Below, in pieces: positions 25,150-34,829 of a DNA stretch of 64,000 bases (positions within the stretch are counted from its first letter, which is position 1; every line of letters starts with the position of its first letter). Under the pieces are notes generated by a model. It ran no database searches, was not told where the DNA came from, and saw only the letters and a program-made list of their open reading frames with translations. Source of the stretch: a virus. Location: positions 49,994 to 113,993 of IMG/VR virus record IMGVR_UViG_3300021091_005099. One strand, written 5' to 3'. Both the position numbers and the translations under genes were made by a program.

Positions 25150-25539
25150 TTATTTGGTTTTGACGTTCTTGGCCGCGCCTTTTCGGTTTGCGTTGGGGTC
25201 CTGTCTGCGCTTCCTTGCGCCTGCCTTGGCCCGTCCCTTTTTCCCCAGTGCGTAGGCCTTGCTTCTGGGCAGGCACTTGGGCTTGCCCTCCTTGCTTGAA
25301 CCTCTGGCGCAATCACCCCTGATTTTGCCATCGGGTCCGAACCTGACCCATTTCTGCTTGAACCATTTCTTGAGGTTCTCGTCCAGTGATTCGTTGAACA
25401 AAAGATCGCCGCAGTTGACGCAGATGTCGATGTCTTCCTTCTTGACGCAGTTGGGCACTCGCTTGCCGAACATGGTCTTCATGCCCTTCTTCTCATAGCC
25501 CTTCCAGCACTTCTCAGTGATTATCTCAGCTATCCTCAT
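25150..25539 (-). CDS. Small basic Cys-rich protein with N-terminal tag
   Basis: A 129-residue protein. It begins MRIAEIITEK, which matches the tag pattern of neighbouring genes, with ITE as a possible gp21-type cleavage site. The middle has CVNCGDLLF and GKIRGDCARGS, and the C-terminus is very basic (GKKGRAKAGARKRRQ), suggesting nucleic-acid binding. The start at 25539 overlaps the stop of the 39-residue gene (ATGA). A capsid-internal location is inferred. Confidence 0.72.
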   Translation of the reverse strand: MRIAEIITEKCWKGYEKKGMKTMFGKRVPNCVKKEDIDICVNCGDLLFNESLDENLKKWFKQKWVRFGPDGKIRGDCARGSSKEGKPKCLPRSKAYALGKKGRAKAGARKRRQDPNANRKGAAKNVKTK

Positions 25540-25655
25540 TTCTTCTTCCTGCCTGCGCAGTGGGCCTTCTGGCTGAAACCCTTTGGCCTGGCGCAGTTGA
25601 TTGAGCGCTTGTACTTGCCGCTCCATTTCTCTGATATGAATTCGTAATAGCGCAT
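25536..25655 (-). CDS. 39-residue basic protein with FISE tag
   Basis: A small ORF read directly from the sequence: MRYYEFISEKWSGKYKRSIN, then a Cys/His/basic end with KGFSQKAHCAGRKKK. The N-terminus closely resembles the T4 internal-protein capsid-targeting sequence MKTYQEFIAE. Its start lies 1 nt after the preceding stop and its stop overlaps the next ATG, so it is a coupled gene. Confidence 0.75.
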   Translation of the reverse strand: MRYYEFISEKWSGKYKRSINCARPKGFSQKAHCAGRKKK

Positions 25656-25656
25656 T

Positions 25657-27234
25657 TTACTTGCTCTTGTTGCCCCAGTTGGCCGCTCCAACCTTCCTAC
25701 ATCTCACCAGCGCCCCCGATGCGTAGGCTGATGGCCATACCTTGTAACGGCTCTTGACCTTGTGGTAGCAGGCGTCCTGCTTCTCCGTGATGTCTGTGAC
25801 CTCCAGTGCCATTCTGAGGTTGTCCGCCAGATGTGATTCATAGCTGACTTCCTCTTTTTTGTCAGCGTCGGTCTTTGGTGGTTCTTGATTTTGCTTCTCC
25901 TTGCTGGCCATGTACTGTCGCACTGGCTCTCCCAGCTTCTTCATGATCCGTGACTTGAATGGTGTCCTCTGCATCTCTTCCTTCTTGGGCATGTAATTGG
26001 CATACTTGTCCTGCATGTTCTTGACGTAGCCCAGCCCATGTGCTCCGTCCAATCTGACTTTGACCTGCTCGATCTCGCTGGCTATCTCCTTGGCCAGTTG
26101 TGTGTTGCCCTGTGACTTGGCACTGTCAAGTGCTGAGTTCATGGCCTTGACCACTGGCACGCTGTTGTCTATAGCGTTGCTGATGGTGCCCACTCCCGCG
26201 ATGCTGCCTGCAATGATGCCGGCCGCTGCTAATCTTTGTAAAAATCCTTTTAGGTCCTCGTCCAGTTCAACTTCTTTCAAATTATCGTAGTTCTTTTTGA
26301 AGTAATCCTGTGCCACCGTGTAATTGCCTGATGAGAACACGATCTTGCCATTTTTGTCCAACACGTCGTACTTGCCTTTTGATGACTGGCTAATGTAAGG
26401 TTTTTGTGTGCTTTCGAAATGCCTGCTGTAAGGTCTAGACTTGGCGAACTCCCTGCCAAAACTAAATTCCTGTCTTTGAGCCAATTCTTTGGCTGAAAAT
26501 CCTGGTGCTACCACTCCACCCCTGGCTGCTTTAGCAACATCTGCTCTATTTTGAAAATATGCCTTGATCTCATCTGGATTCATCATGTCCAGTTTCTTCT
26601 TCCTGGCCGCCATGCTGCCGGACATCTGCGACCCCTCATGCTGCTGATTTTCTCTGTTCTCCTTGGCGCGCTCCTTCTCAAACTGCTGCACGCGCTTCTT
26701 CAATATGTTCAGCATGCCGGGCTTGGTCTCGATGTCATCCACAGCGGTCTCCGTGGCCAGTATCTCGTCTATGTTCTTCTTCACTATCTCAGCGTGCCTC
26801 TGGTGCAGGTCGCCTATCTCTTCCCTGTAGGGGTTCAATTTCTGATAGTCCTCGTAGTGATAGGCCGCGTCCAGCATGTCCACCGCCCGGTTCATCTTGG
26901 TTTGTATCCAGCCCTCTATGTCATCTCCCGGCTGTACCATTGTGGTGATCTTCAGCGCAGCCTGTGCAGTGTGGTACAACTGCTCTCGGCTCATGTGTCC
27001 CTCGCCGGAATCTTCTTTGTAAATGTGCTCGGTCTCAAGATAATCCGCAATGCCCTTGATGTAGCCCGACGCTATGTCAATCTTTTTTGCCACCCAGGAT
27101 TCCATCTCCTGGTCGTTGCTGAGTAAATTGTGTAATTTTATCGCGTATTTGCCCGCCCTGATGGCCTGTGTGAGGAACATGCTGGCTTCATAGGTGTCTG
27201 GTTGCACTGGTGCGTTTATCTCGTTGATGCGCAT
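25657..27234 (-). CDS. Large tagged phage protein with conserved C-terminal motif
   Basis: A 525-residue protein starting MRINEINAPVQPDTYE. It has a long helical N-terminal half, a hydrophobic segment near residue 335 (LAAAGIIAGSIAGVG) and a C-terminal motif YKVWPSAYASGALVRCRKVG followed by AANWGNK. This C-terminal motif recurs in marine phages in my recollection. A CATAAATA element 5 nt upstream predicts a leaderless late message. A head-internal or ejection-protein role is plausible but not shown. Confidence 0.72.
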   Translation of the reverse strand: MRINEINAPVQPDTYEASMFLTQAIRAGKYAIKLHNLLSNDQEMESWVAKKIDIASGYIKGIADYLETEHIYKEDSGEGHMSREQLYHTAQAALKITTMVQPGDDIEGWIQTKMNRAVDMLDAAYHYEDYQKLNPYREEIGDLHQRHAEIVKKNIDEILATETAVDDIETKPGMLNILKKRVQQFEKERAKENRENQQHEGSQMSGSMAARKKKLDMMNPDEIKAYFQNRADVAKAARGGVVAPGFSAKELAQRQEFSFGREFAKSRPYSRHFESTQKPYISQSSKGKYDVLDKNGKIVFSSGNYTVAQDYFKKNYDNLKEVELDEDLKGFLQRLAAAGIIAGSIAGVGTISNAIDNSVPVVKAMNSALDSAKSQGNTQLAKEIASEIEQVKVRLDGAHGLGYVKNMQDKYANYMPKKEEMQRTPFKSRIMKKLGEPVRQYMASKEKQNQEPPKTDADKKEEVSYESHLADNLRMALEVTDITEKQDACYHKVKSRYKVWPSAYASGALVRCRKVGAANWGNKSK

Positions 27235-27239
27235 GTGCG

Positions 27240-27247
27240 TATTTATG
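27240..27247 (-). promoter_or_regulatory. Late promoter CATAAATA, leaderless start at 27234
   Basis: The element ends 5 nt before the ATG, so with T4 geometry the start point is the A of the ATG. Confidence 0.7.
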
Positions 27248-27264
27248 CTGCGAACTGCCTAGAA

Positions 27265-27441
27265 CTATTCCTCTGTGAAACCCTCTTCGCATAGATCACA
27301 GGAGCAGGTCCTGCACACCTCTATCTTCCACCGATGCCTAACCACGCTGCCCACTTTTTCATGTTCCCAGCGCTCCAGTCGCTTGCCACAGTGGCTACCG
27401 TGTCCGCAGTTGACGCAGTAGTCTTTGCTTTTGATTTCCAT
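27265..27441 (-). CDS. 58-residue double zinc-ribbon-like protein
   Basis: An ORF read by eye in what otherwise looks like a gap: MEIKSKDYCVNCGHGSHCGK, a basic middle, then CRTCSCDLCEEGF. Four Cys pairs or near-pairs suggest one or two zinc sites. The start overlaps the stop of the MKIKEV gene (ATGATG, with AAGGAG upstream). The function is unknown. Confidence 0.65.
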   Translation of the reverse strand: MEIKSKDYCVNCGHGSHCGKRLERWEHEKVGSVVRHRWKIEVCRTCSCDLCEEGFTEE

Positions 27442-27707
27442 CATCTCCTTGCAAATCCCGGGCCACCAAACAGGTTGGTGCCTTTCAATTCATGGGCGCC
27501 CTTGGCAGTGCCGTCCGCTTTCTTTGGAGTGTAGGCCCGTGGCACTCTGGGTGCTCGTGTACCTGATTGTCCTGGAGTTCCTGTAAAGCTCTTCTTGAAT
27601 CTGTCTGGCCCTATGGCCACGTGTGGGTTGGCAATGCTGGCGATGTTGCCTGCGCTAGTCGCTCCTGCTGATGCTGTCTCTCTGATCATTACTTCTTTGA
27701 TTTTCAT
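27441..27707 (-). CDS. Tagged small basic protein
   Basis: An 88-residue protein starting MKIKEVMIRETASAGATSAG, with IRE as a possible processing site. The rest is Gly/Pro/Arg-rich and basic. An AATAAATA element lies 5 nt upstream. It belongs to the family of short-tagged proteins in this region and is inferred to be capsid-associated. Confidence 0.7.
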   Translation of the reverse strand: MKIKEVMIRETASAGATSAGNIASIANPHVAIGPDRFKKSFTGTPGQSGTRAPRVPRAYTPKKADGTAKGAHELKGTNLFGGPGFARR

Positions 27708-27712
27708 ATTCC

Positions 27713-27720
27713 TATTTATT
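27713..27720 (-). promoter_or_regulatory. Late promoter AATAAATA, leaderless start at 27707
   Basis: Five nt separate the element from the ATG, which puts the predicted start point exactly at the ATG. Confidence 0.7.
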
Positions 27721-27735
27721 TTTTTTTAGATTTTT

Positions 27736-28269
27736 TTATTCTCCTTGCCAATTATAATACCATGGAGACCTAAATTTTGGTGTTACAATGTCAAGATGTT
27801 TAACCAAATCACAAGCAAACACTCCAGAACCACCTATAGTTAAATGTGATACGTTCTCTACACAATTATTTTTTTTATCTTTCCAGAAAAGATAAGGTAT
27901 CAAATCAAAGGCTGTTGAACGCGGTTCTTGGAATTTAAAATTATGCGTAGATTTAATTGTATCAAGAACATATTGATAATCATTACAAGGCACAAGAAGA
28001 CATGTATGAAATTTAATCAACGTAGATTTAGTCATAAAACCATTGTTATAATTACTATCGCTATTTTTTATTTCTAGTCTAATAGAATGTTTCCATGCAC
28101 CTGTCAAGTCCAATTGATAAAATCTTAAATTAGGTATAGAATTATAATCTTCAAAATTGTGTGGTTCAATATCAAATTCATCGATGAAAATATTATCAAA
28201 AAAGATTCTAGTGTTAGGTCTTTTTTTATAAATTTCACAATAAAACCCCAATGCTAACACGTTTAACAT
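27736..28269 (-). CDS. AT-rich hypothetical protein after SpeD
   Basis: A 177-residue protein with strongly AT-rich codons, starting 2 nt after the SpeD stop. It contains LTGAWKHSIRLEIKNSDSNY and LIPYLFWKDKKNNCVENV. No family is recognised. The tight spacing suggests that it arrived with or works with SpeD. Confidence 0.6.
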   Translation of the reverse strand: MLNVLALGFYCEIYKKRPNTRIFFDNIFIDEFDIEPHNFEDYNSIPNLRFYQLDLTGAWKHSIRLEIKNSDSNYNNGFMTKSTLIKFHTCLLVPCNDYQYVLDTIKSTHNFKFQEPRSTAFDLIPYLFWKDKKNNCVENVSHLTIGGSGVFACDLVKHLDIVTPKFRSPWYYNWQGE

Positions 28270-28271
28270 TC

Positions 28272-28643
28272 TTATATCTTTGGTGCTTGTCTAGTTAAGA
28301 ATTTGGTTGTATATTTTTTAGGACCAAAATGTTTCTTTATAATTTTCTCTGCCAATTTTGGATCGAATCTTTTGCAACTAAAAATATCAAAATATGCTGT
28401 GCCATCGAGATCCATAAAATGTGCAGATATGTTTGACGTCTTGATCAATTGAATCATGCTGTAACCTTGATTTTTATGTCCTGATAATAGATATTCTATT
28501 TGAGGTTTTCCATGTGGAATCATTTTGATCGTGTGTAGAAGATCTTTTATGAAATTTTCGATCGCCTTCTTATTTTTAATGTTATCATTGCAACCGCTGC
28601 AATCCAACATCAAATGATATCCCCAAGCAGAATTATTCTTCAT
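28272..28643 (-). CDS. speD: S-adenosylmethionine decarboxylase proenzyme
   Basis: A 123-residue protein matching bacterial-type SpeD: WGYHLMLDCSGCN, MIPHGKPQIEYLLSG, MIQLIKTSNISAH and YFDIFSCKRFD. S70 in TSNISAH corresponds to the serine that becomes the pyruvoyl group after self-cleavage; the preceding residue is Thr where Glu is common. It makes decarboxylated SAM for spermidine synthesis. Phage SpeD is known in marine T4-like phages. An AATAAGTA element lies 5 nt upstream. Confidence 0.85.
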   Translation of the reverse strand: MKNNSAWGYHLMLDCSGCNDNIKNKKAIENFIKDLLHTIKMIPHGKPQIEYLLSGHKNQGYSMIQLIKTSNISAHFMDLDGTAYFDIFSCKRFDPKLAEKIIKKHFGPKKYTTKFLTRQAPKI

Positions 28644-28648
28644 GCTCG

Positions 28649-28656
28649 TACTTATT
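28649..28656 (-). promoter_or_regulatory. Late-type promoter variant AATAAGTA, leaderless start at 28643
   Basis: One base differs from NATAAATA, with the same 5-nt spacing to the ATG as the consensus elements. Confidence 0.5.
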
Positions 28657-28672
28657 TTAATTTTTTGTCTGT

Positions 28673-28987
28673 TTATTTTTTCTTGCCTTGCCGCATGTTG
28701 ATCTGCCAGTGTGCCAGCTGTTTCTTGCGTGGCGAAGCAGTTTTAGAACTGCGTATCTTCTTAAGTTGCGCGATGGTGGCACCCTTGGGTATGCCTGCTC
28801 GCTTGCTGTCACCTTTGCGTCCCGGACCCTTGCCATCCGCGAAATTCTCTTGTATGGAATTGATCAGATGCAATTTTCTTAAATTTCTCTCTGTTTCGCC
28901 AGGTCGCACATCCTGGGTGGTGTTTTGCTTGGTGATTATGCCAACCCCAGCAGCATCTTCTCTATGAACTATCTCTCTGATCTTCAT
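28673..28987 (-). CDS. Tagged small basic DNA-binding-like protein
   Basis: A 104-residue protein starting MKIREIVHREDAAGVG. Its C-terminal half is basic and glycine-rich (DGKGPGRKGDSKRAGIPKGA, then SPRKKQLAHWQINMRQGKKK), suggesting nucleic-acid contact. It overlaps the preceding 55-residue gene by 4 nt. It belongs to the MKIREI-tag group. Confidence 0.7.
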   Translation of the reverse strand: MKIREIVHREDAAGVGIITKQNTTQDVRPGETERNLRKLHLINSIQENFADGKGPGRKGDSKRAGIPKGATIAQLKKIRSSKTASPRKKQLAHWQINMRQGKKK

Positions 28988-29151
28988 CGCACTCGGAACG
29001 GGTAGCCCATGGGGAAGCCCGCATGGTATCCCATCTTGTTGCCCTGTTTGACCCTGGTGGTGGCACGCTTCTCGTATCGGTTGATGATGCGATTCACGTC
29101 AGGATGTATCATGTTGGGGTCTTTGGTGTATAGTATTTCTCTTATCTTCAT
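28984..29151 (-). CDS. 55-residue tagged basic protein
   Basis: It starts MKIREILYTKDPNMIHPDVN at 29151, where the ATG overlaps the upstream stop (ATGA). The longer in-frame reading up to 29232 lies inside that gene and is rejected. The remainder is basic (RYEKRATTRVKQGNKMGYH). It shares the N-terminal tag with its neighbours. Confidence 0.68.
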   Translation of the reverse strand: MKIREILYTKDPNMIHPDVNRIINRYEKRATTRVKQGNKMGYHAGFPMGYPFRVR

Positions 29152-29717
29152 GCGGCAACCCGGTTGTCTATTTCTGCAAACAGTGATTTTATTTTGGCCA
29201 CATTGGGATGATTGTTTGTGGTGTTGTTCCACACGTAGGACTTCAGTGGTTGGCGGGCTTTTTTTGCCAGGAATGCACGGTGGTTACCGTCAACGATTTC
29301 TGATCCTCGTGGTGATCGAGACATTGTCATGGGTGGCAGCTTGGAAAAGTCTATTGTTCTGGGATCTGCGTCATTCTGCCTAAAATATCTTGCCGGCCTA
29401 CCTGCTTCCTTATCTTGTACATATTGATTATATCTTTTTTCCAACTCCAACTCATACTCTCGCTCGTGTGGTGGTATTTGGCTGGCCTGTAAGACCACCG
29501 GACCGGTCAACACCCATTGATCTATTTCATATATAAATCTTCTCCATTCTGCAAAAGGCACTTCGTCTCGGTAAGCGAAATCAATGATCTCACGTTGCTT
29601 GGGGAACATTTCCCCCAATAATTTTCTAATTACATCGGAATGCTGTTGTGTCACAATGGCATTGATCTTGGAGAAATTTTGTTTAAATAAATCTTCTGTG
29701 ATTTCCCTGATCTTCAT
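29148..29717 (-). CDS. ParB/sulfiredoxin-like protein with MKIREI tag
   Basis: A 189-residue protein. After the tag MKIREITEDLF comes a helical region and a C-terminal segment SEIVDGNHRAFLAKKA that resembles the ParB/Srx nucleotide-binding motif (DGNHR). ParB-like domains bind or cut DNA or hydrolyse nucleotides. With a capsid-targeting-like tag (ITE), it could be packaged and injected. It overlaps the Dps stop (ATGA). Confidence 0.65.
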   Translation of the reverse strand: MKIREITEDLFKQNFSKINAIVTQQHSDVIRKLLGEMFPKQREIIDFAYRDEVPFAEWRRFIYEIDQWVLTGPVVLQASQIPPHEREYELELEKRYNQYVQDKEAGRPARYFRQNDADPRTIDFSKLPPMTMSRSPRGSEIVDGNHRAFLAKKARQPLKSYVWNNTTNNHPNVAKIKSLFAEIDNRVAA

Positions 29718-30154
29718 TTTTTCACTGTGCTCCTCAGCATCCAGCCGTGCTTGCTGTGCCTGTCGATCCTTTCAGCTATGAAGTCACTGAATCCATGCAG
29801 GTGGTTGGCCTCCAACACGTCAAAGGCCGCGTTCAAGCTCTTCAGCACCTTGTCGTTGCTGTCGATCAAATTCTCATACATCTTTTCCGCTGCAGGTATC
29901 TCGTCCGACTGCTGTATGGTGGCCAATTCTCGTAATCGATCAAACACTCCTGGGGCATATGTGCCCATGGCCCTAAGCTCTTCCGCGAACTTGTCAATGG
30001 CCTCGAAAACTTCTTCATATATCTTGCCCAGCAGCTCATGATCCTGTGGGAAGTTCCTGCCTTCCACGTTCCAGTGATAGTAGTGTGCCTGTAGGTAAAA
30101 AAGGAAGCTGTCCGCAAAGGCCTGTTTTGCGATCTTGCCTATTTCTGGAGTCAT
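29714..30154 (-). CDS. dps: Dps-like DNA-protecting ferritin
   Basis: A 146-residue ferritin-like protein. YHWNVEGRNFPQDHELLGKI and EAIDKFAEELRAMG give the ferroxidase residues H27, H39, D54 and E58, with the same spacing (12, 15, 4) as E. coli Dps H51, H63, D78 and E82. Dps binds DNA and oxidises iron with peroxide. The C-terminal RIDRHSKHGWMLRS is typical. It may protect phage or host DNA from oxidative damage. Confidence 0.85.
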   Translation of the reverse strand: MTPEIGKIAKQAFADSFLFYLQAHYYHWNVEGRNFPQDHELLGKIYEEVFEAIDKFAEELRAMGTYAPGVFDRLRELATIQQSDEIPAAEKMYENLIDSNDKVLKSLNAAFDVLEANHLHGFSDFIAERIDRHSKHGWMLRSTVKK

Positions 30155-30160
30155 GATATG

Positions 30161-30757
30161 TTACTTATCCACCTGTTGGTGCTGGCCGAACTGGCTTGGA
30201 TTTCCACCCTTTATCAAAGCTGCCCACACGGTGAGCTGCCGGCAGAACCTCTCTATCTCCTCTGCCAGCTCCTTGTCTTTCATGATGTTGTCCCTGCCCT
30301 GTGGTTTGGCCTCAACTGTGCATCTGGGAGGTATGGTAAAACCCAATTGCGTGGCGAAGTTCAAAAACATTCCATGGATGTGCTGGAATCCATCGCCGCC
30401 TCCTGAAACCACGGAGCCGAAAACCTTGTTGTAGTTGGGATAGTATTTGTTGTCTCTGCTCCAGCCGTCGATGTAGTCAAAACGCTCGATAACAGATGAT
30501 ATGTAGCCGCTGTGCAGACCCCACCAGATGGGAGTGGCGAATATCAATCCATCATAGTTTTTTATAAAGTCCGCCAGTATGGGTTTGAGCTGATCATCGT
30601 AGCTCTCCGTGCCGCATTCATAGTCTATCTCATTCATGGTGATTATTTTGCACTCGGAACCTTGCTTCTTGAATTCAGCAGCTACCAATTCGCACACGGC
30701 ATAGGTGTTGCTGACTTCGGTTTTCTTTAGGCTGCCATTGAATATCATGAATTTCAT
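30161..30757 (-). CDS. NAD(P)H-dependent flavin reductase / flavodoxin-fold protein
   Basis: A 198-residue protein starting MKFMIFNGSLKKTEVSNTYA, typical of the FMN-binding loop of NADPH-dependent FMN reductases, then FATPIWWGLHSG and GSVVSGGGDGFQHIHG for the flavin edge. The ATG at 30757 is chosen over an in-frame upstream ATG (30781), which lies inside the radical SAM gene. A CTTAAATA element ends 5 nt upstream. It may supply reduced flavin or electrons, for example to the neighbouring radical SAM enzyme. Confidence 0.8.
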   Translation of the reverse strand: MKFMIFNGSLKKTEVSNTYAVCELVAAEFKKQGSECKIITMNEIDYECGTESYDDQLKPILADFIKNYDGLIFATPIWWGLHSGYISSVIERFDYIDGWSRDNKYYPNYNKVFGSVVSGGGDGFQHIHGMFLNFATQLGFTIPPRCTVEAKPQGRDNIMKDKELAEEIERFCRQLTVWAALIKGGNPSQFGQHQQVDK

Positions 30758-30762
30758 ATGAG

Positions 30763-30770
30763 TATTTAAG
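30763..30770 (-). promoter_or_regulatory. Late-type promoter variant CTTAAATA, leaderless start at 30757
   Basis: Same 5-nt spacing as the consensus late elements; TTAAATA in place of ATAAATA. Confidence 0.5.
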
Positions 30771-31845
30771 CAAAAATCCAAGTATTTAAAAATACGTCCA
30801 CATCTTCAAGCCTTAAAGTTCTGTGCATATCCTGCGATTTTATCTCATTTTTCAACATTTCATGTAGATTTTTGTCATAGTTGTCTTCACTATATTTTTT
30901 AATCAGCGATTCTACATTTAATCTGAATTGGTGCGCTTTATAATTGTCTATGTTAAATTTCTTTATTTTTATTAGGTTATCAATGTATCTCTGTCTTTGT
31001 TCCATTGGCACTGCGGCATGAGTCCATATGTTTCCCACGACAGGACTAAGACTGATGCTGCGGGTGTATTGACTCATCCATTCCACAGTATTTTTTATGT
31101 CATGCACAGTGATATTGGAAGCGACCAAATTAAACATGATAGAGATACCATTGTTTCTACAAAAATTTATGTTCTCTTCAAATTTGTTCCATTCGAGGGG
31201 ATATCTAACGTAAGATCCCAATTGTCCTATAGCATCGCAGGAAATTGTTACAGTAAAATTTTTGAATAATGTTATGATTTTTTTCCATCTAGATGGCAAA
31301 TTTTTCAAATTGGTATTGATGACTATTTCACAATCTGGATTCTCGATGGCCAAATCTTTTAAGAATTCCAAATAAGATGCATTGTACGTGGGTTCTCCAC
31401 CGGCCATGTAAACTTTTTTTAAATCTTTTTTATTATATTTGTTTAAATTGTGTTTAGGTTTTGTTAATTTTATCCCCTTCTCTTTCGCCCACAATGTGCT
31501 GGCCCCTGGACCACATGTTTTGCATTTCAAATTACAAGTAGGATCGTTTCTTATGTCTATGTATTGTATGTTTGTTTCATCTATTTTTGGTGCTGAAAAT
31601 TTCCTAACCCATTTTATTGTTTCTCTTATTCTGGGACTACTTTCTCCCTGTCTTTCCTGCTCATAACAGCTATTGCAGACACTGGGTTGTTGTCCTTCCA
31701 GCATTAATCGTCTCACATCATCCAAACTGTTATTCGCTGATAGAGCCGATCCATAACAACAAGGTCTTTGTCTTCCGCTTAGATCTAGGTGTTCGTGTAT
31801 CCAAGGCAATACACAGATAGCTTTGTTAGCACGTGTATCAAACAT
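30766..31845 (-). CDS. Twitch/SPASM-type radical SAM protein
   Basis: A 359-residue AT-rich protein. The radical SAM triad is CNLKCKTC (C104, C108, C111) and the following MAGGEP fits the SAM-binding loop. Extra cysteines occur before it (CVLPWIHEHL, PCCYG, CNSCYEQE), suggesting an auxiliary cluster. Twitch/SPASM enzymes often modify peptides or proteins. The substrate is unknown. Confidence 0.8.
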   Translation of the reverse strand: MFDTRANKAICVLPWIHEHLDLSGRQRPCCYGSALSANNSLDDVRRLMLEGQQPSVCNSCYEQERQGESSPRIRETIKWVRKFSAPKIDETNIQYIDIRNDPTCNLKCKTCGPGASTLWAKEKGIKLTKPKHNLNKYNKKDLKKVYMAGGEPTYNASYLEFLKDLAIENPDCEIVINTNLKNLPSRWKKIITLFKNFTVTISCDAIGQLGSYVRYPLEWNKFEENINFCRNNGISIMFNLVASNITVHDIKNTVEWMSQYTRSISLSPVVGNIWTHAAVPMEQRQRYIDNLIKIKKFNIDNYKAHQFRLNVESLIKKYSEDNYDKNLHEMLKNEIKSQDMHRTLRLEDVDVFLNTWIFA

Positions 31846-31851
31846 GGTTGA

Positions 31852-32061
31852 TTATTTTTTGCGAGGCATCGGATCTTCGCCAGTGAGGTAAGGGCGAGAG
31901 AACCATAGTCGAAACCATTCTGGCGTGCCGGGCTGTATTCCGTGCTTTCTTTGGTATTCAGATTTCTCCGTGGCGGAGTGGCTGATATTTTCACCAACAC
32001 TGGGCTGATGTGCCTGGGTGTTTGCTATGCCTGCTAATTTTTTCAAATGTTCGAGGTCCAT
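31852..32061 (-). CDS. Small conserved protein (LKKLAGI start)
   Basis: A 69-residue protein starting MDLEHLKKLAGIANTQ, then a polar linker and a Trp/Phe-rich end (GTPEWFRLWFSRPYL). A short amphipathic KLAGI start is also seen in the protein at 23940-25076. The function is unknown; a virion-associated role is possible. Confidence 0.6.
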   Translation of the reverse strand: MDLEHLKKLAGIANTQAHQPSVGENISHSATEKSEYQRKHGIQPGTPEWFRLWFSRPYLTGEDPMPRKK

Positions 32062-32065
32062 ATTA

Positions 32066-32686
32066 TTAAGATGAAAATACCTCCAATGCGTGTTTGTAGT
32101 GTTTTATTCTGTCCTCCAGACCAATGGTGCCACCGTTGATGCGTTTGGTCATTGTGAGGATGTCTCCGTCATCGGCATACTGATTTAGATTATTGGTTTT
32201 CCAGAACCAGCAGGCACTCTTTACTGCCCCTTCAAATGTCTCCAGTAAAGCCGGAATTTCTTCCACGGCCATGCCGACACTCTCTGCAAATTTGCTGTAA
32301 TTGTTCTTGCCAGTCAATTGTATCAATCCCCTGCCACAGTATCTGAACCCATCTCCTGATGATTCGTCACCGTTGCCCATCCTGCTCGCATAGACTCGAT
32401 TGGCAATCTGTTCCTGTTTGTGTGCGTATTCTTTTGCCAACTCATCTGTGGAGAAATATTTTGGGAACACCTTTCTCAAGCTCTCCCATCTATAATTTAA
32501 ATTTTCTTTCAATCTTTTGAATCCTCCGCTCTCGTGCGCGCATTGTGCTATGAATGCTGCCACTCGCTCTGCTGTATCGATCTCATATTCGGGCAACACA
32601 TTTGACAGGGCTTGATGCCATCCCTCCAGGTCGGGGTTATTACCAATTATTGATTGCAACTGTTCTTTTGTTAAAATGAATGACAT
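32066..32686 (-). CDS. GH19 chitinase/lysozyme-type endolysin
   Basis: A 206-residue glycoside hydrolase family 19 protein. The catalytic glutamate region is AFIAQCAHESGGFKRL (E52), then YCGRGLIQLTGKNNY and NGGTIGLEDRI. It is a single domain without a signal peptide, as for a holin-dependent peptidoglycan-degrading endolysin. It is about 9 kb from the holin/spanin-like cassette. Confidence 0.85.
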   Translation of the reverse strand: MSFILTKEQLQSIIGNNPDLEGWHQALSNVLPEYEIDTAERVAAFIAQCAHESGGFKRLKENLNYRWESLRKVFPKYFSTDELAKEYAHKQEQIANRVYASRMGNGDESSGDGFRYCGRGLIQLTGKNNYSKFAESVGMAVEEIPALLETFEGAVKSACWFWKTNNLNQYADDGDILTMTKRINGGTIGLEDRIKHYKHALEVFSS

Positions 32687-32692
32687 GTTTGA

Positions 32693-32935
32693 TTACTCTT
32701 CCTTGTTGAAAAAACGATGGTCAGCTTTCTGCTGCGCCTGTGCTTTGATATCTGATTCGTTGTATTGCAGTTTGCCGCTGCGGTTTAGACTTGATGCTCC
32801 TTTGGCGATACCTGGTGCTAATTTTTCAACCTTGCCGCCACGGGCCAGGAACTCCTGCATCATGCGATCTTTCTCGTCCTGCGCTGTTTTGATCTCTTTG
32901 TCTGACCTATAATCTCTCCTTATGTCAATTACCAT
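32693..32935 (-). CDS. Small conserved charged protein
   Basis: An 80-residue protein (MVIDIRRDYRSDKEIKTAQD). It is highly charged and helical, with an EFLARGGKVEKLAPGIAKGA segment. It overlaps the HAD fusion gene by 11 nt. The function is unknown. Confidence 0.65.
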   Translation of the reverse strand: MVIDIRRDYRSDKEIKTAQDEKDRMMQEFLARGGKVEKLAPGIAKGASSLNRSGKLQYNESDIKAQAQQKADHRFFNKEE

Positions 32936-34097
32936 TTTTTTCTCCGTAATTTTTTAAACCCTGTTCTATCGTATTTAATGAGTCTTTGTTGGCCTGATAC
33001 AAGATTCCATAGCCTCCCTTGCTTTGCCATTTTTCTATATTTACGGGACGATCATCAATCAAGATGTTGGCAGCGCCATTGGCGGTGGCATATTTTTCCT
33101 TCCTGCCGGTCACTATGGTCTCGTCTGGCTGTTCTATGTTCTGGTTGATCCAGACCTTCTTGTACCTGGCAGAGTTGTCATGATCTCCCCTCAGTGGAGA
33201 TGTCAGTATTGAGAATCTGCCACCGGTGAATTTTTTGATCAAGCCTATGAGAGCATCAGTTGTGGAAAACTTGGGCAAGGTCTCAAAGAAGTTGGTGCCT
33301 GTGATCCTGTCGATCACGTCCTGTCTGAGATCTTTGGTCTTGTCGGACGCCAGTTGCTTCCAATGATTCACTCCATAGAGCTTCTCGACCCCACCAAAGA
33401 AATCAGCCAGCACTCCGTCCATGTCCAGGTAAACAGTGGGTTTACCATTTTTCTGTTCAGGCATTGACTGAGTATACAACTTTTCCGTGTTTGTTGCAAC
33501 CTGCTCTTTAACTCCCATGTATCGTCTCAATTCTTGATACAGTTCGGTGCCGAACTTGGGATTTACCATCTTCATGAAGCTGTTCTGATCTCCCGACGCC
33601 GCGGCTGCTCGAGCACCGCTGGCACTGATGCCACCTATGCCTTCCTGGTCCGGATCTCTCTCACCCGAGCTCACAACATCTATCGTGTCGAACTGGAAGG
33701 GTATGCTGCCTTTCTTGTCAGGCTTATTGTTATACTGATTTAGGAATGTTTTGAATTCCGTCACTCGATCCGAGCCAGCCACCATGGTGATATTCTTGTA
33801 TCCTCGGTTCATCAATTCCTGCAACAATTGCACGATGGTCCTGATAGTGTCGTCACCGTGAAAGTTCACGCCTGTGTAGGCCTTTCTAAGATAATTTAAC
33901 TTGTAGGAGAACGGCAAGGGATCTGTCTTGGGCTTTTGCGTTGAGCTGATGAATATGGAGTGGTCAGCAGCCTTGGACTTGGCGGTGTTCAATACTTTCT
34001 GAAACACGGCCTCATGTCCCAGTGTGGGCGGGTTATATCTGCCGAATGCAAAAACTATGGAATCGTTCTTGGCCTCAAATAGTTCCTTTAGCAACAT
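32925..34097 (-). CDS. Nucleotidylyltransferase-HAD phosphatase fusion with tag
   Basis: A 390-residue two-domain enzyme. The N-half has FAFGRYNPPTLGH, the nucleotide-binding motif of cytidylyl/NMN adenylyltransferases, and GISASGARAAAASGD. The C-half is a HAD domain with YLDMDGVLADF, LTSPL and ILIDDRPVN, like 5'(3')-deoxyribonucleotidases. The ATG at 34097 gives MLLKELFEAKN, whose LFE/A fits a gp21-type cleavage site; an in-frame GTG at 34106 is less likely. It may act in NAD or nucleotide repair. Confidence 0.8.
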   Translation of the reverse strand: MLLKELFEAKNDSIVFAFGRYNPPTLGHEAVFQKVLNTAKSKAADHSIFISSTQKPKTDPLPFSYKLNYLRKAYTGVNFHGDDTIRTIVQLLQELMNRGYKNITMVAGSDRVTEFKTFLNQYNNKPDKKGSIPFQFDTIDVVSSGERDPDQEGIGGISASGARAAAASGDQNSFMKMVNPKFGTELYQELRRYMGVKEQVATNTEKLYTQSMPEQKNGKPTVYLDMDGVLADFFGGVEKLYGVNHWKQLASDKTKDLRQDVIDRITGTNFFETLPKFSTTDALIGLIKKFTGGRFSILTSPLRGDHDNSARYKKVWINQNIEQPDETIVTGRKEKYATANGAANILIDDRPVNIEKWQSKGGYGILYQANKDSLNTIEQGLKNYGEKNGN

Positions 34098-34428
34098 CGT
34101 ACTCACCCTTTTTCATATTTTCAAGTTCTCTGTCGGCGAGCACCTGTGCCACTTTCTCTCTGGTCGCTTGCGGAAAGAAATCCTTGACGTCTTCGCCTGG
34201 CTTACCAAACTCTTTTGTGTAGGCCTTGGCAGCATCATTGACTAACAGGTTCCATCTTTTAACTGCATTGTCGTGATCGTAAGTATTATTCTTAAGTGAT
34301 CTGTTCAGCCAAAATATCAGAGGCATAAAATTTTTTCTATAGAGATCTTCGTTGTTGTTGATATAAAGATCCAGTTCATTCACTGCGTCAATGCTGGATT
34401 CTGATATGAACTGATGAGCCCTTACCAT
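34075..34428 (-). CDS. Tagged hypothetical protein (MVRAHQFISE)
   Basis: A protein of about 117 residues. The ATG at 34428 overlaps the upstream stop (ATGGTAA) and yields MVRAHQFISESSID, which is very similar in length and pattern to the T4 capsid-targeting sequence MKTYQEFIAEA. The mature part is helical and charged (YRKNFMPLIFWLNRSLKNN). An in-frame ATG at 34443 is also possible. A capsid-internal protein is inferred. Confidence 0.68.
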   Translation of the reverse strand: MVRAHQFISESSIDAVNELDLYINNNEDLYRKNFMPLIFWLNRSLKNNTYDHDNAVKRWNLLVNDAAKAYTKEFGKPGEDVKDFFPQATREKVAQVLADRELENMKKGEYDVAKGTI

Positions 34429-34829
34429 TTCCTGCAACTCCAATACCTTGCTTTGGTCCTAGGTCCTGGGTTGGCGCAGTTGTGTCTCGCTCTGAAGCTC
34501 TTTCTTCTTCCCGGAATGTGTTTCTTGATCCTCATATTGGGATCACCAAAGTTCACTTTCTTAACATTTCCAGTCTTGGGATCTTTTACATAAACTTTGA
34601 ATTTTTTGACGTCACCCTTCATTGGTCTGCCCAATGCCACTTTCCTGCCTCGATATTCGGCTTCCCACAATTCTGTTTCCGGAAATCCCAAATAACCAAA
34701 CATCTCGTGAAAATCCTGTGTGTCCTCCACGGTGATCTCATCTGCCTCCGGCAGTGGTTCGTAAGCGGGTTCTGCCGCTATGCTGTCCAATCTAGTTAAT
34801 AATACTCGGATATCTTGGTAGTTGCTCAT
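34422..34829 (-). CDS. Conserved protein with basic Cys-containing C-terminus
   Basis: A 135-residue protein. The N-half is acidic (PLPEADEITVEDTQDFHEMF). The C-half is basic, with KKHIPGRRKSFRARHNCANP and a terminal ARYWSCRKW. This basic Cys motif resembles the ends of the small proteins near 25.5 kb. A GCTAAATA late-like element lies 6 nt upstream. Virion association is inferred. Confidence 0.68.
   Translation of the reverse strand: MSNYQDIRVLLTRLDSIAAEPAYEPLPEADEITVEDTQDFHEMFGYLGFPETELWEAEYRGRKVALGRPMKGDVKKFKVYVKDPKTGNVKKVNFGDPNMRIKKHIPGRRKSFRARHNCANPGPRTKARYWSCRKW

What the first reader, a model, noticed from the sequence alone, without database searches (positions are those of the whole stretch)
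25150..34428. A family of capsid-targeting-like N-terminal tags
At least eight coupled genes start with short, similar peptides: MRYYEFISE, MVRAHQFISE, MRIAEIITE, MKIREITE, MKIREILYTK, MKIREIVHRE, MKIKEVMIRE and MLLKELFE. The T4 capsid-targeting sequence MKTYQEFIAE, cut by gp21 after (L/I)xE, is strikingly similar. The tagged proteins differ afterwards and are mostly basic. Inferred: they are packed in the head and ejected with the DNA.
Basis: partly seen in the sequence, partly recalled or inferred. Interest (0 to 1): 0.82.

Follow-up and report, generated by a model that had tools for sequence, protein, structure and literature searches.

The report
Phage protein tags for head packaging
A marine T4-like phage carries at least nine neighbouring genes whose otherwise different proteins share a short front tag resembling the one T4 uses to load proteins into its head; homologues of two of them are recorded in purified virions of other marine phages, so this is probably a large kit of proteins packed with the phage DNA.

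Summary
All eight peptides are gene starts on the minus strand, and a ninth (MRINEI, 525 aa) belongs with them. A profile trained on relatives of one tagged family, the window's own tag left out, picks five N-termini in the contig, all in this cassette (0.3 expected).

The tags are best read as T4-type capsid-targeting sequences (CTS), most followed by a gp21-type site, (L/I)xE. Reasons: (1) cargo bodies stay constant while the first 9-14 residues turn over but keep the pattern; (2) relatives that hold head genes encode gp21, and their gp23 carries the same kind of site; (3) the homologous NMNAT of cyanophage S-SCSM1 starts MKSFLQFLKE|A and was found in purified virions by mass spectrometry; (4) small basic modules tagged one by one here are strung together elsewhere in polyproteins with [ILV]xE at the joints, and one joint is E in polyproteins (25/28) but A or Q in free-standing copies (45/47).

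Limits: the contig lacks head genes, gp21 included. Three tags lack (L/I)xE at the canonical place. Packaging is supported through homologues for two of nine families; ejection is untested. CTS-tagged basic proteins are known in T-even phages; scale, module shuffling and the polyprotein link are the new part.

The parts
34075..34428 (-). 117-aa protein, tag MVRAHQFISE|SS
   Evidence: ORF; seven relatives keep FISE, FIAE, FIQE or FIRE before a constant body; G001 orthologue starts MRASEFLNEA
32925..34097 (-). 390-aa NMN-adenylyltransferase/cytidylyltransferase-like plus 5'-nucleotidase-like protein, tag MLLKELFE|A
   Evidence: phrog_3041 6e-49 and phrog_2643 6e-26, PF06941; cyanophage homologues with a CTS-like start are in virions
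29148..29717 (-). 189-aa protein, tag MKIREITE|D
   Evidence: ORF; profile 8.4 bits; only a near-identical relative found
28984..29151 (-). 55-aa basic protein, tag MKIREILYTK, no (L/I)xE at positions 6-10
   Evidence: profile 10.3 bits; fused with the 39-aa module in L022, L066, L010, L027
28673..28987 (-). 104-aa basic protein, tag MKIREIVHRE; internal site IQE|NFADGK before a widespread basic module
   Evidence: P1 is E in 48/48 distinct contexts of the NF.DG module
27441..27707 (-). 88-aa basic protein, tag MKIKEVMIRE|T
   Evidence: profile 7.9 bits; relatives keep M(K/R)IxE(I/V) starts; NATAAATA 13 nt upstream
25657..27234 (-). 525-aa protein, start MRINEI (ninth tag) and C-terminal module after DITE|KQDACYHKVK
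   Evidence: profile 10.1 bits; phrog_727 6e-23 at the C-terminus; the same module is a separately tagged protein in G001 (locus L043)
25536..25655 (-). 39-aa basic protein, tag MRYYEFISE|KWSGKYK..GFSQKAHC
   Evidence: module preceded by [ILVFM]xE in 10/11 contexts
25150..25539 (-). 129-aa basic protein, tag MRIAEIITE|KCWKGY; second internal site LDE|NLKKWF
   Evidence: 80 relatives with constant body and varied tags; [ILVFM]xE before CWKGY in 48/51 and before LKKWF in 40/41
34422..34829 (-). 135-aa basic protein without this tag; probable joint ELWE|AEYRGRKV
   Evidence: phrog_7595 3e-11 on residues 56-135; site held in 7/13 contexts, LFDA in most others; the G001 orthologue starts MKINEI

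Best explanation
The cassette encodes a set of head-internal proteins of a T4-like phage. Each polypeptide starts with a T4-type capsid-targeting sequence of about 8-10 residues, roughly M-[KR]-x(2)-[EQ]-[FIVL], which docks it in the prohead core (inferred). In most of them a (L/I)xE ends the tag and is cut by the gp21-type prohead protease, freeing the mature protein inside the head (inferred). The cargo includes an NMN-adenylyltransferase/nucleotidase-like enzyme and several small, basic, Cys-containing modules that probably bind the packaged DNA (inferred). On infection some may enter the cell with the DNA (inferred, least certain). Shown here: the tag similarity, its turnover on constant cargo, gp21 and gp23 sites in relatives, the motif at module joints, and published virion data for homologues.
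For: Profile test. Constant cargo with varied tags that keep the pattern. gp21 in eight long relatives; the two long relatives without it that were tested also lack gp23. gp23 sites FLTE|A in T4, FLSE|A in Melnitz, YLSE|Q in G001, ILTE|T in S-SM1. S-SCSM1 NMNAT starts MKSFLQFLKE|AA and is in the virion proteome; the S-SM1 homologue starts MKKFSAFLNE|A and was detected in virions. S-SCSM1 gene 29 with the CWDGY, YHKVK and KWF modules is annotated 'virion protein'. Module joints carry [ILVFM]xE. E in polyproteins, A or Q in free-standing copies. Three T4 facts match: (L/I)xE site, 10-residue CTS, diverse cargo (PMC9026906).
Against: gp21 is not on this contig. Three tags (55-, 104-, 525-aa) have no site at positions 6-10, and the 55-aa family lacks it in relatives too. 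Many relatives have LFDA at the YRGRKV joint, with Asp where Glu is needed. The loose regex is not enriched. No virion data for this phage or for seven of the nine families. Tag profile does not transfer to T4 or the cyanophages, so likeness to the T4 CTS rests on the pattern and on homologues.
Confidence: 0.8

Rival explanations
1. The tags are virion-association signals for another place (portal, neck, tail or baseplate hub) and are not removed by the prohead protease.
For: The virion data for homologues do not say where in the particle the proteins lie (PMC9602691, PMC3037559). Some tags lack the cutting site.
Against: The tags end in the same kind of site as gp23 of the same phages; module joints look like protease sites; the match to the T4 CTS, which acts in the prohead core.
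Confidence: 0.09
2. The similar starts are inherited: duplicated genes, or 5' ends spread by recombination, without a targeting role.
For: Three neighbouring genes share MKIREI; the cassette is a place of fusion and splitting.
Against: Codons and flanks differ between the three; the bodies are unrelated; tags change faster than cargo yet keep the pattern.
Confidence: 0.05
3. The starts serve translation or protein stability (favourable early codons, an N-terminal helix), not targeting.
For: Lys or Arg at position 2 is common at gene starts in general (own knowledge).
Against: The pattern is confined to the cassette among 174 genes, and untagged neighbours in the same stretch lack it.
Confidence: 0.03
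4. Chance likeness picked out by eye.
For: The loose T4-style regex gives 4 hits against 4.1 expected.
Against: The trained profile gives 5 against 0.32 with complete clustering, repeated in G001.
Confidence: 0.02

Closest known systems
T4 internal proteins IPI, IPII, IPIII and Alt with the capsid-targeting sequence, processed by gp21
   Same: Short N-terminal peptide (T4 IPII/IPIII MKTYQEFIAE|A, Alt MELITELFDE) on unrelated, often basic proteins; (L/I)xE site; gp21 in the relatives
   Different: About nine tagged genes in one cassette here; a different flavour of tag (M-K/R-I-x-E-I); includes an NMNAT-like enzyme; small modules that are also found joined in polyproteins
NMNAT/cytidylyltransferase virion proteins of cyanophages (S-SCSM1 ORF91, S-SM1 T4-GC190)
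   Same: Homologous enzyme domain; CTS-like start MKSFLQFLKE|A or MKKFSAFLNE|A; detected in virions
   Different: The window protein has a 5'-nucleotidase-like domain fused behind it. In the passages I read, the published papers report the virion finding without mention of a targeting tag
Cyanophage module polyprotein (S-SM1_115, S-SCSM1_29, syn9 gp114; PHROG 727-type)
   Same: Same KWF, YHKVK, CWKGY and GFSQKAHC modules with [LIV]xE at most joints
   Different: One long protein there; separate, individually tagged genes here
Ejection proteins of giant Salmonella phage SPN3US
   Same: Many head-internal proteins matured by a prohead protease and packed with the genome (PMC5694885, PMC10052503; abstracts)
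   Different: Another phage group; no sequence comparison with this cassette was made here

Membership tests
T4-type CTS-tagged internal head proteins | Short N-terminal peptide shared by otherwise unrelated proteins | tested here: met
   Nine genes; profile test, different bodies
T4-type CTS-tagged internal head proteins | (L/I)xE gp21 site at the end of the tag | tested here: inconclusive
   Met in six of nine tags; the 55-, 104- and 525-aa proteins have IxE only at positions 3-5. In T4 targeting does not need cutting
T4-type CTS-tagged internal head proteins | The phage encodes a gp21-type prohead protease | tested here: inconclusive
   Absent from this contig, which also lacks gp23 and is a fragment; present in eight long relatives
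T4-type CTS-tagged internal head proteins | Protein is present in the mature virion | not testable with these tools
   Only for homologues: S-SCSM1 NMNAT and S-SM1 GC190 by published proteomics; S-SCSM1_29 by its label
T4-type CTS-tagged internal head proteins | Propeptide is removed during head maturation | not testable with these tools
   Needs N-terminal proteomics
T4-type CTS-tagged internal head proteins | Ejected into the host with the DNA | not testable with these tools
   No data for any homologue read here

The most novel reading that the evidence does not exclude
In gp21-bearing marine phages the prohead protease also works as a polyprotein protease: a pool of small basic Cys-containing modules, which other kinds of phage make as free-standing proteins, is carried into the head either strung together with (L/I/V)xE at the joints or one by one behind a targeting tag, and the two arrangements interconvert by fusion and splitting of genes.
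Probability: 0.5. Interest if true: 0.78.

Novelty: new variant of a known kind. Interest (0 to 1): 0.62.

Why it matters
It would explain why NMNAT-like proteins keep turning up in cyanophage virions, would let head-internal proteins be predicted from sequence in uncultured marine phages, and would extend T4's few tagged internal proteins to a much larger, shuffled set whose parts are otherwise unannotated.

Tried and rejected
Loose T4-style regex over whole genomes: not above chance in the contig, so not used as evidence. The trained profile finds nothing at >=5 bits in S-SM1 or in the part of Melnitz scored, 4 against 2.5 expected in T4, none in T7 and one in lambda: it is lineage-specific, as those T4-like phages use another flavour of tag. 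Recent DNA duplication of MKIREI was rejected. AlphaFold of the 129-aa protein was poor (mean pLDDT 61.6) and its PDB matches are not significant. Pfam and NCBIfam give nothing for most cargo. The PDB sequence hits of the 189-aa protein are short stretches of proteins named SAKe and were not taken further. The IMG/VR scan for the 189-aa protein gave one near-identical copy only. A megablast of the cassette against phage records found nothing.

Full report
What is there. The window is the last 64 kb of a 113,993-bp IMG/VR contig. Its DNA polymerase is nearest to that of Sinorhizobium phage Phosso (50% identity); the tagged NMNAT-like enzyme has its listed homologues mostly in cyanophages and Methylophilales phages, among them Kyanoviridae. 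Eight of the nine proteins are net basic. The untagged genes of the stretch (among them Dps-like, FMN reductase, radical SAM, GH19 and AdoMet decarboxylase) have no (L/I)xE in their first 14 residues, while all nine tagged ones have; the tagged set was chosen partly by this look, so that contrast is descriptive.

More than chance. A profile of the first seven residues was trained on 25 different tags from relatives of the 129-aa protein, the window's own left out. Over 174 genes of the contig it finds five N-termini at 7 bits or more, all in the cassette, with 0.32 expected and never more than 3 in 300 shuffles; one of the five is the member of the training family. In G001, a 196-kb relative with the same cassette, the four best are all in that cassette, one of them again from the training family. 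A loose T4-style regex is not enriched. The three MKIREI genes use different codons and have different flanks.

Tags turn over on constant cargo. Among 80 relatives of the 129-aa protein the best segment is 72-100% identical, yet the first 9-14 residues include MRIAEIITE, MRASEIITE, MLIEEILGE, MRYKEIIEA, MKIYEITEGT, MRAKEFIEGT and MNLQEFLFELDEGT. The 88-aa and 117-aa families behave alike. In a few relatives the body instead follows a longer stretch ending in IDEGT, LVDEGT or KQTEGT.

Protease and head. T4 gp21 cuts after L/I-X-E, the first ten residues of IPIII suffice for targeting, and Asp at position 10 blocks cutting but not targeting (PMC9026906). gp21 is found in Melnitz, P-RSM1, G001 and five other long relatives; two further relatives over 170 kb lack it, and both also lack gp23, as this contig does, so they look like fragments without the head module. 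gp23 carries FLTE|A in T4, FLSE|A in Melnitz, YLSE|Q in G001 and ILTE|T in S-SM1; the positions in the last three were set by eye against T4.

Virion evidence from homologues. S-SCSM1 NMNAT was found by mass spectrometry of CsCl-purified virions; its authors cite the same for two other cyanophages and allow that such proteins might be carry-over (PMC9602691). The protein starts MKSFLQFLKE|AA, close to T4 MKTYQEFIAE|A. The S-SM1 homologue, detected in that virion (PMC3037559), starts MKKFSAFLNE|A. S-SCSM1 genes 89, 90, 92, 93 and 97 around the NMNAT are annotated 'virion protein', as is gene 29, a long protein with KWF, YHKVK and CWDGY modules. I take that label to mean detection by mass spectrometry; the record does not say so. 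Not all those neighbours have a CTS-like start.

Modules and joints. Small basic modules sit either behind a tag or inside longer proteins. The residues just before them hold [ILVFM]xE within 0-4 positions in 10/11 (WSxKYK), 48/51 (CWKGY), 40/41 (LKKWF), 19/28 (YHKVK) and 7/13 (YRGRKV) distinct contexts, against 11-16% at random positions. Many contexts come from related phages, and part of the motif could belong to the module itself. For the NFADGK module of the 104-aa protein, P1 is E in 48/48 and P3 is V, I, L, M or F in 45/48 while P2 and P4 vary; it stands directly behind MKIREVTE, MKSFLTFLE or MKSFKSFLDE, or far inside proteins of 500 aa and more. In the window the 55-aa and 39-aa genes are two tagged genes; in L022, L066, L010 and L027 they are one gene with one tag, joined by RVEG, RVKEA or RVKEEK.

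Natural contrast. The SFCARM module carries GGLNE|KGR in five T4-like phages read and GGL(N/T)(A/K) in six others: P-SCSP1i, HTVC304P, KBS-P-1A, P-GSP1 and S-CBP4 (Autographiviridae) and HTVC033P. In 75 IMG/VR copies the residue is E in 25 of 28 embedded copies and A or Q in 45 of 47 free-standing ones (Fisher p 2e-14, which ignores shared descent; a single old change could give most of it). CRP-901 and Kolga make the YRGRKV module, and CRP-901 the YHKVK module, without a tag.

What does not fit. MKIREILYTK, MKIREIVHRE and MRINEI have no site at positions 6-10; the 55-aa family lacks it in relatives as well. LFDA in many YRGRKV relatives has Asp where Glu is needed. By the T4 rule such proteins could be targeted but not cut (inference).

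Expression. NATAAATA occurs 11 times on the minus strand of the window and never on the plus strand; two sites lie 13 nt before the 88-aa and 525-aa genes, and three more 14-15 nt before the next genes downstream; in G001 it lies 14-24 nt before three tagged genes. It resembles the T4 late promoter TATAAATA (own knowledge), which would fit late expression; the short distance to the start codon is unexplained.

Verdict. The tags are most likely T4-type capsid-targeting sequences on head-internal proteins, most of them cut by a gp21-type protease. Packaging is inferred for the window phage itself, ejection more so. No description of such a tagged cassette or module polyprotein in marine phages came up in the paper searches made, which cover open-licence papers only.

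Noticed in passing
window, minus strand: 59442, 55882, 53304, 45601, 43680, 36799, 27720, 27247, 25090, 23936, 23287: NATAAATA, like the T4 late promoter, occurs 11 times on the minus strand and never on the plus strand; in the cassette it lies 13-15 nt before start codons, an unusually short distance.
   Followed up: partly
window 28272-28643: S-adenosylmethionine decarboxylase-like gene (PF02675, 9e-20) inside the cassette, untagged.
   Followed up: no
window 29714-32686: Ferritin/Dps-like, FMN-reductase-like, radical SAM and GH19 genes sit between tagged genes but carry no tag.
   Followed up: partly
window 29148-29717: 189-aa tagged protein with no Pfam, PHROG or NCBIfam match and only one near-identical relative in the viral collection.
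   Followed up: partly
G000:C1 about 8.2-20.3 kb (L001, L002): One very long open frame (over 4,000 codons) in the contig upstream of the window, next to baseplate-like genes.
   Followed up: no
L116:18966-19130 (phage T4 gene 61.1): T4 61.1, annotated as hypothetical, starts MKTFKEFIKED, very like the T4 CTS.
   Followed up: no
L125:13626-13835 (S-SCSM1 gene 93): A protein labelled 'virion protein' ends in KRTFKEFLEYIE, a CTS-like sequence at the C-terminus.
   Followed up: no
loci L021, L023, L039, L040, L095: The YRGRKV joint reads LFDA (Asp) in several relatives where others have LFEA, LWEA or VDEA; in T4 Asp blocks cutting but not targeting.
   Followed up: partly
L253:1459-1713, L256:492-710, L259:453-704: T7-like marine phages keep a free-standing SFCARM module gene close to their scaffold or capsid genes, function unknown.
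   Followed up: no
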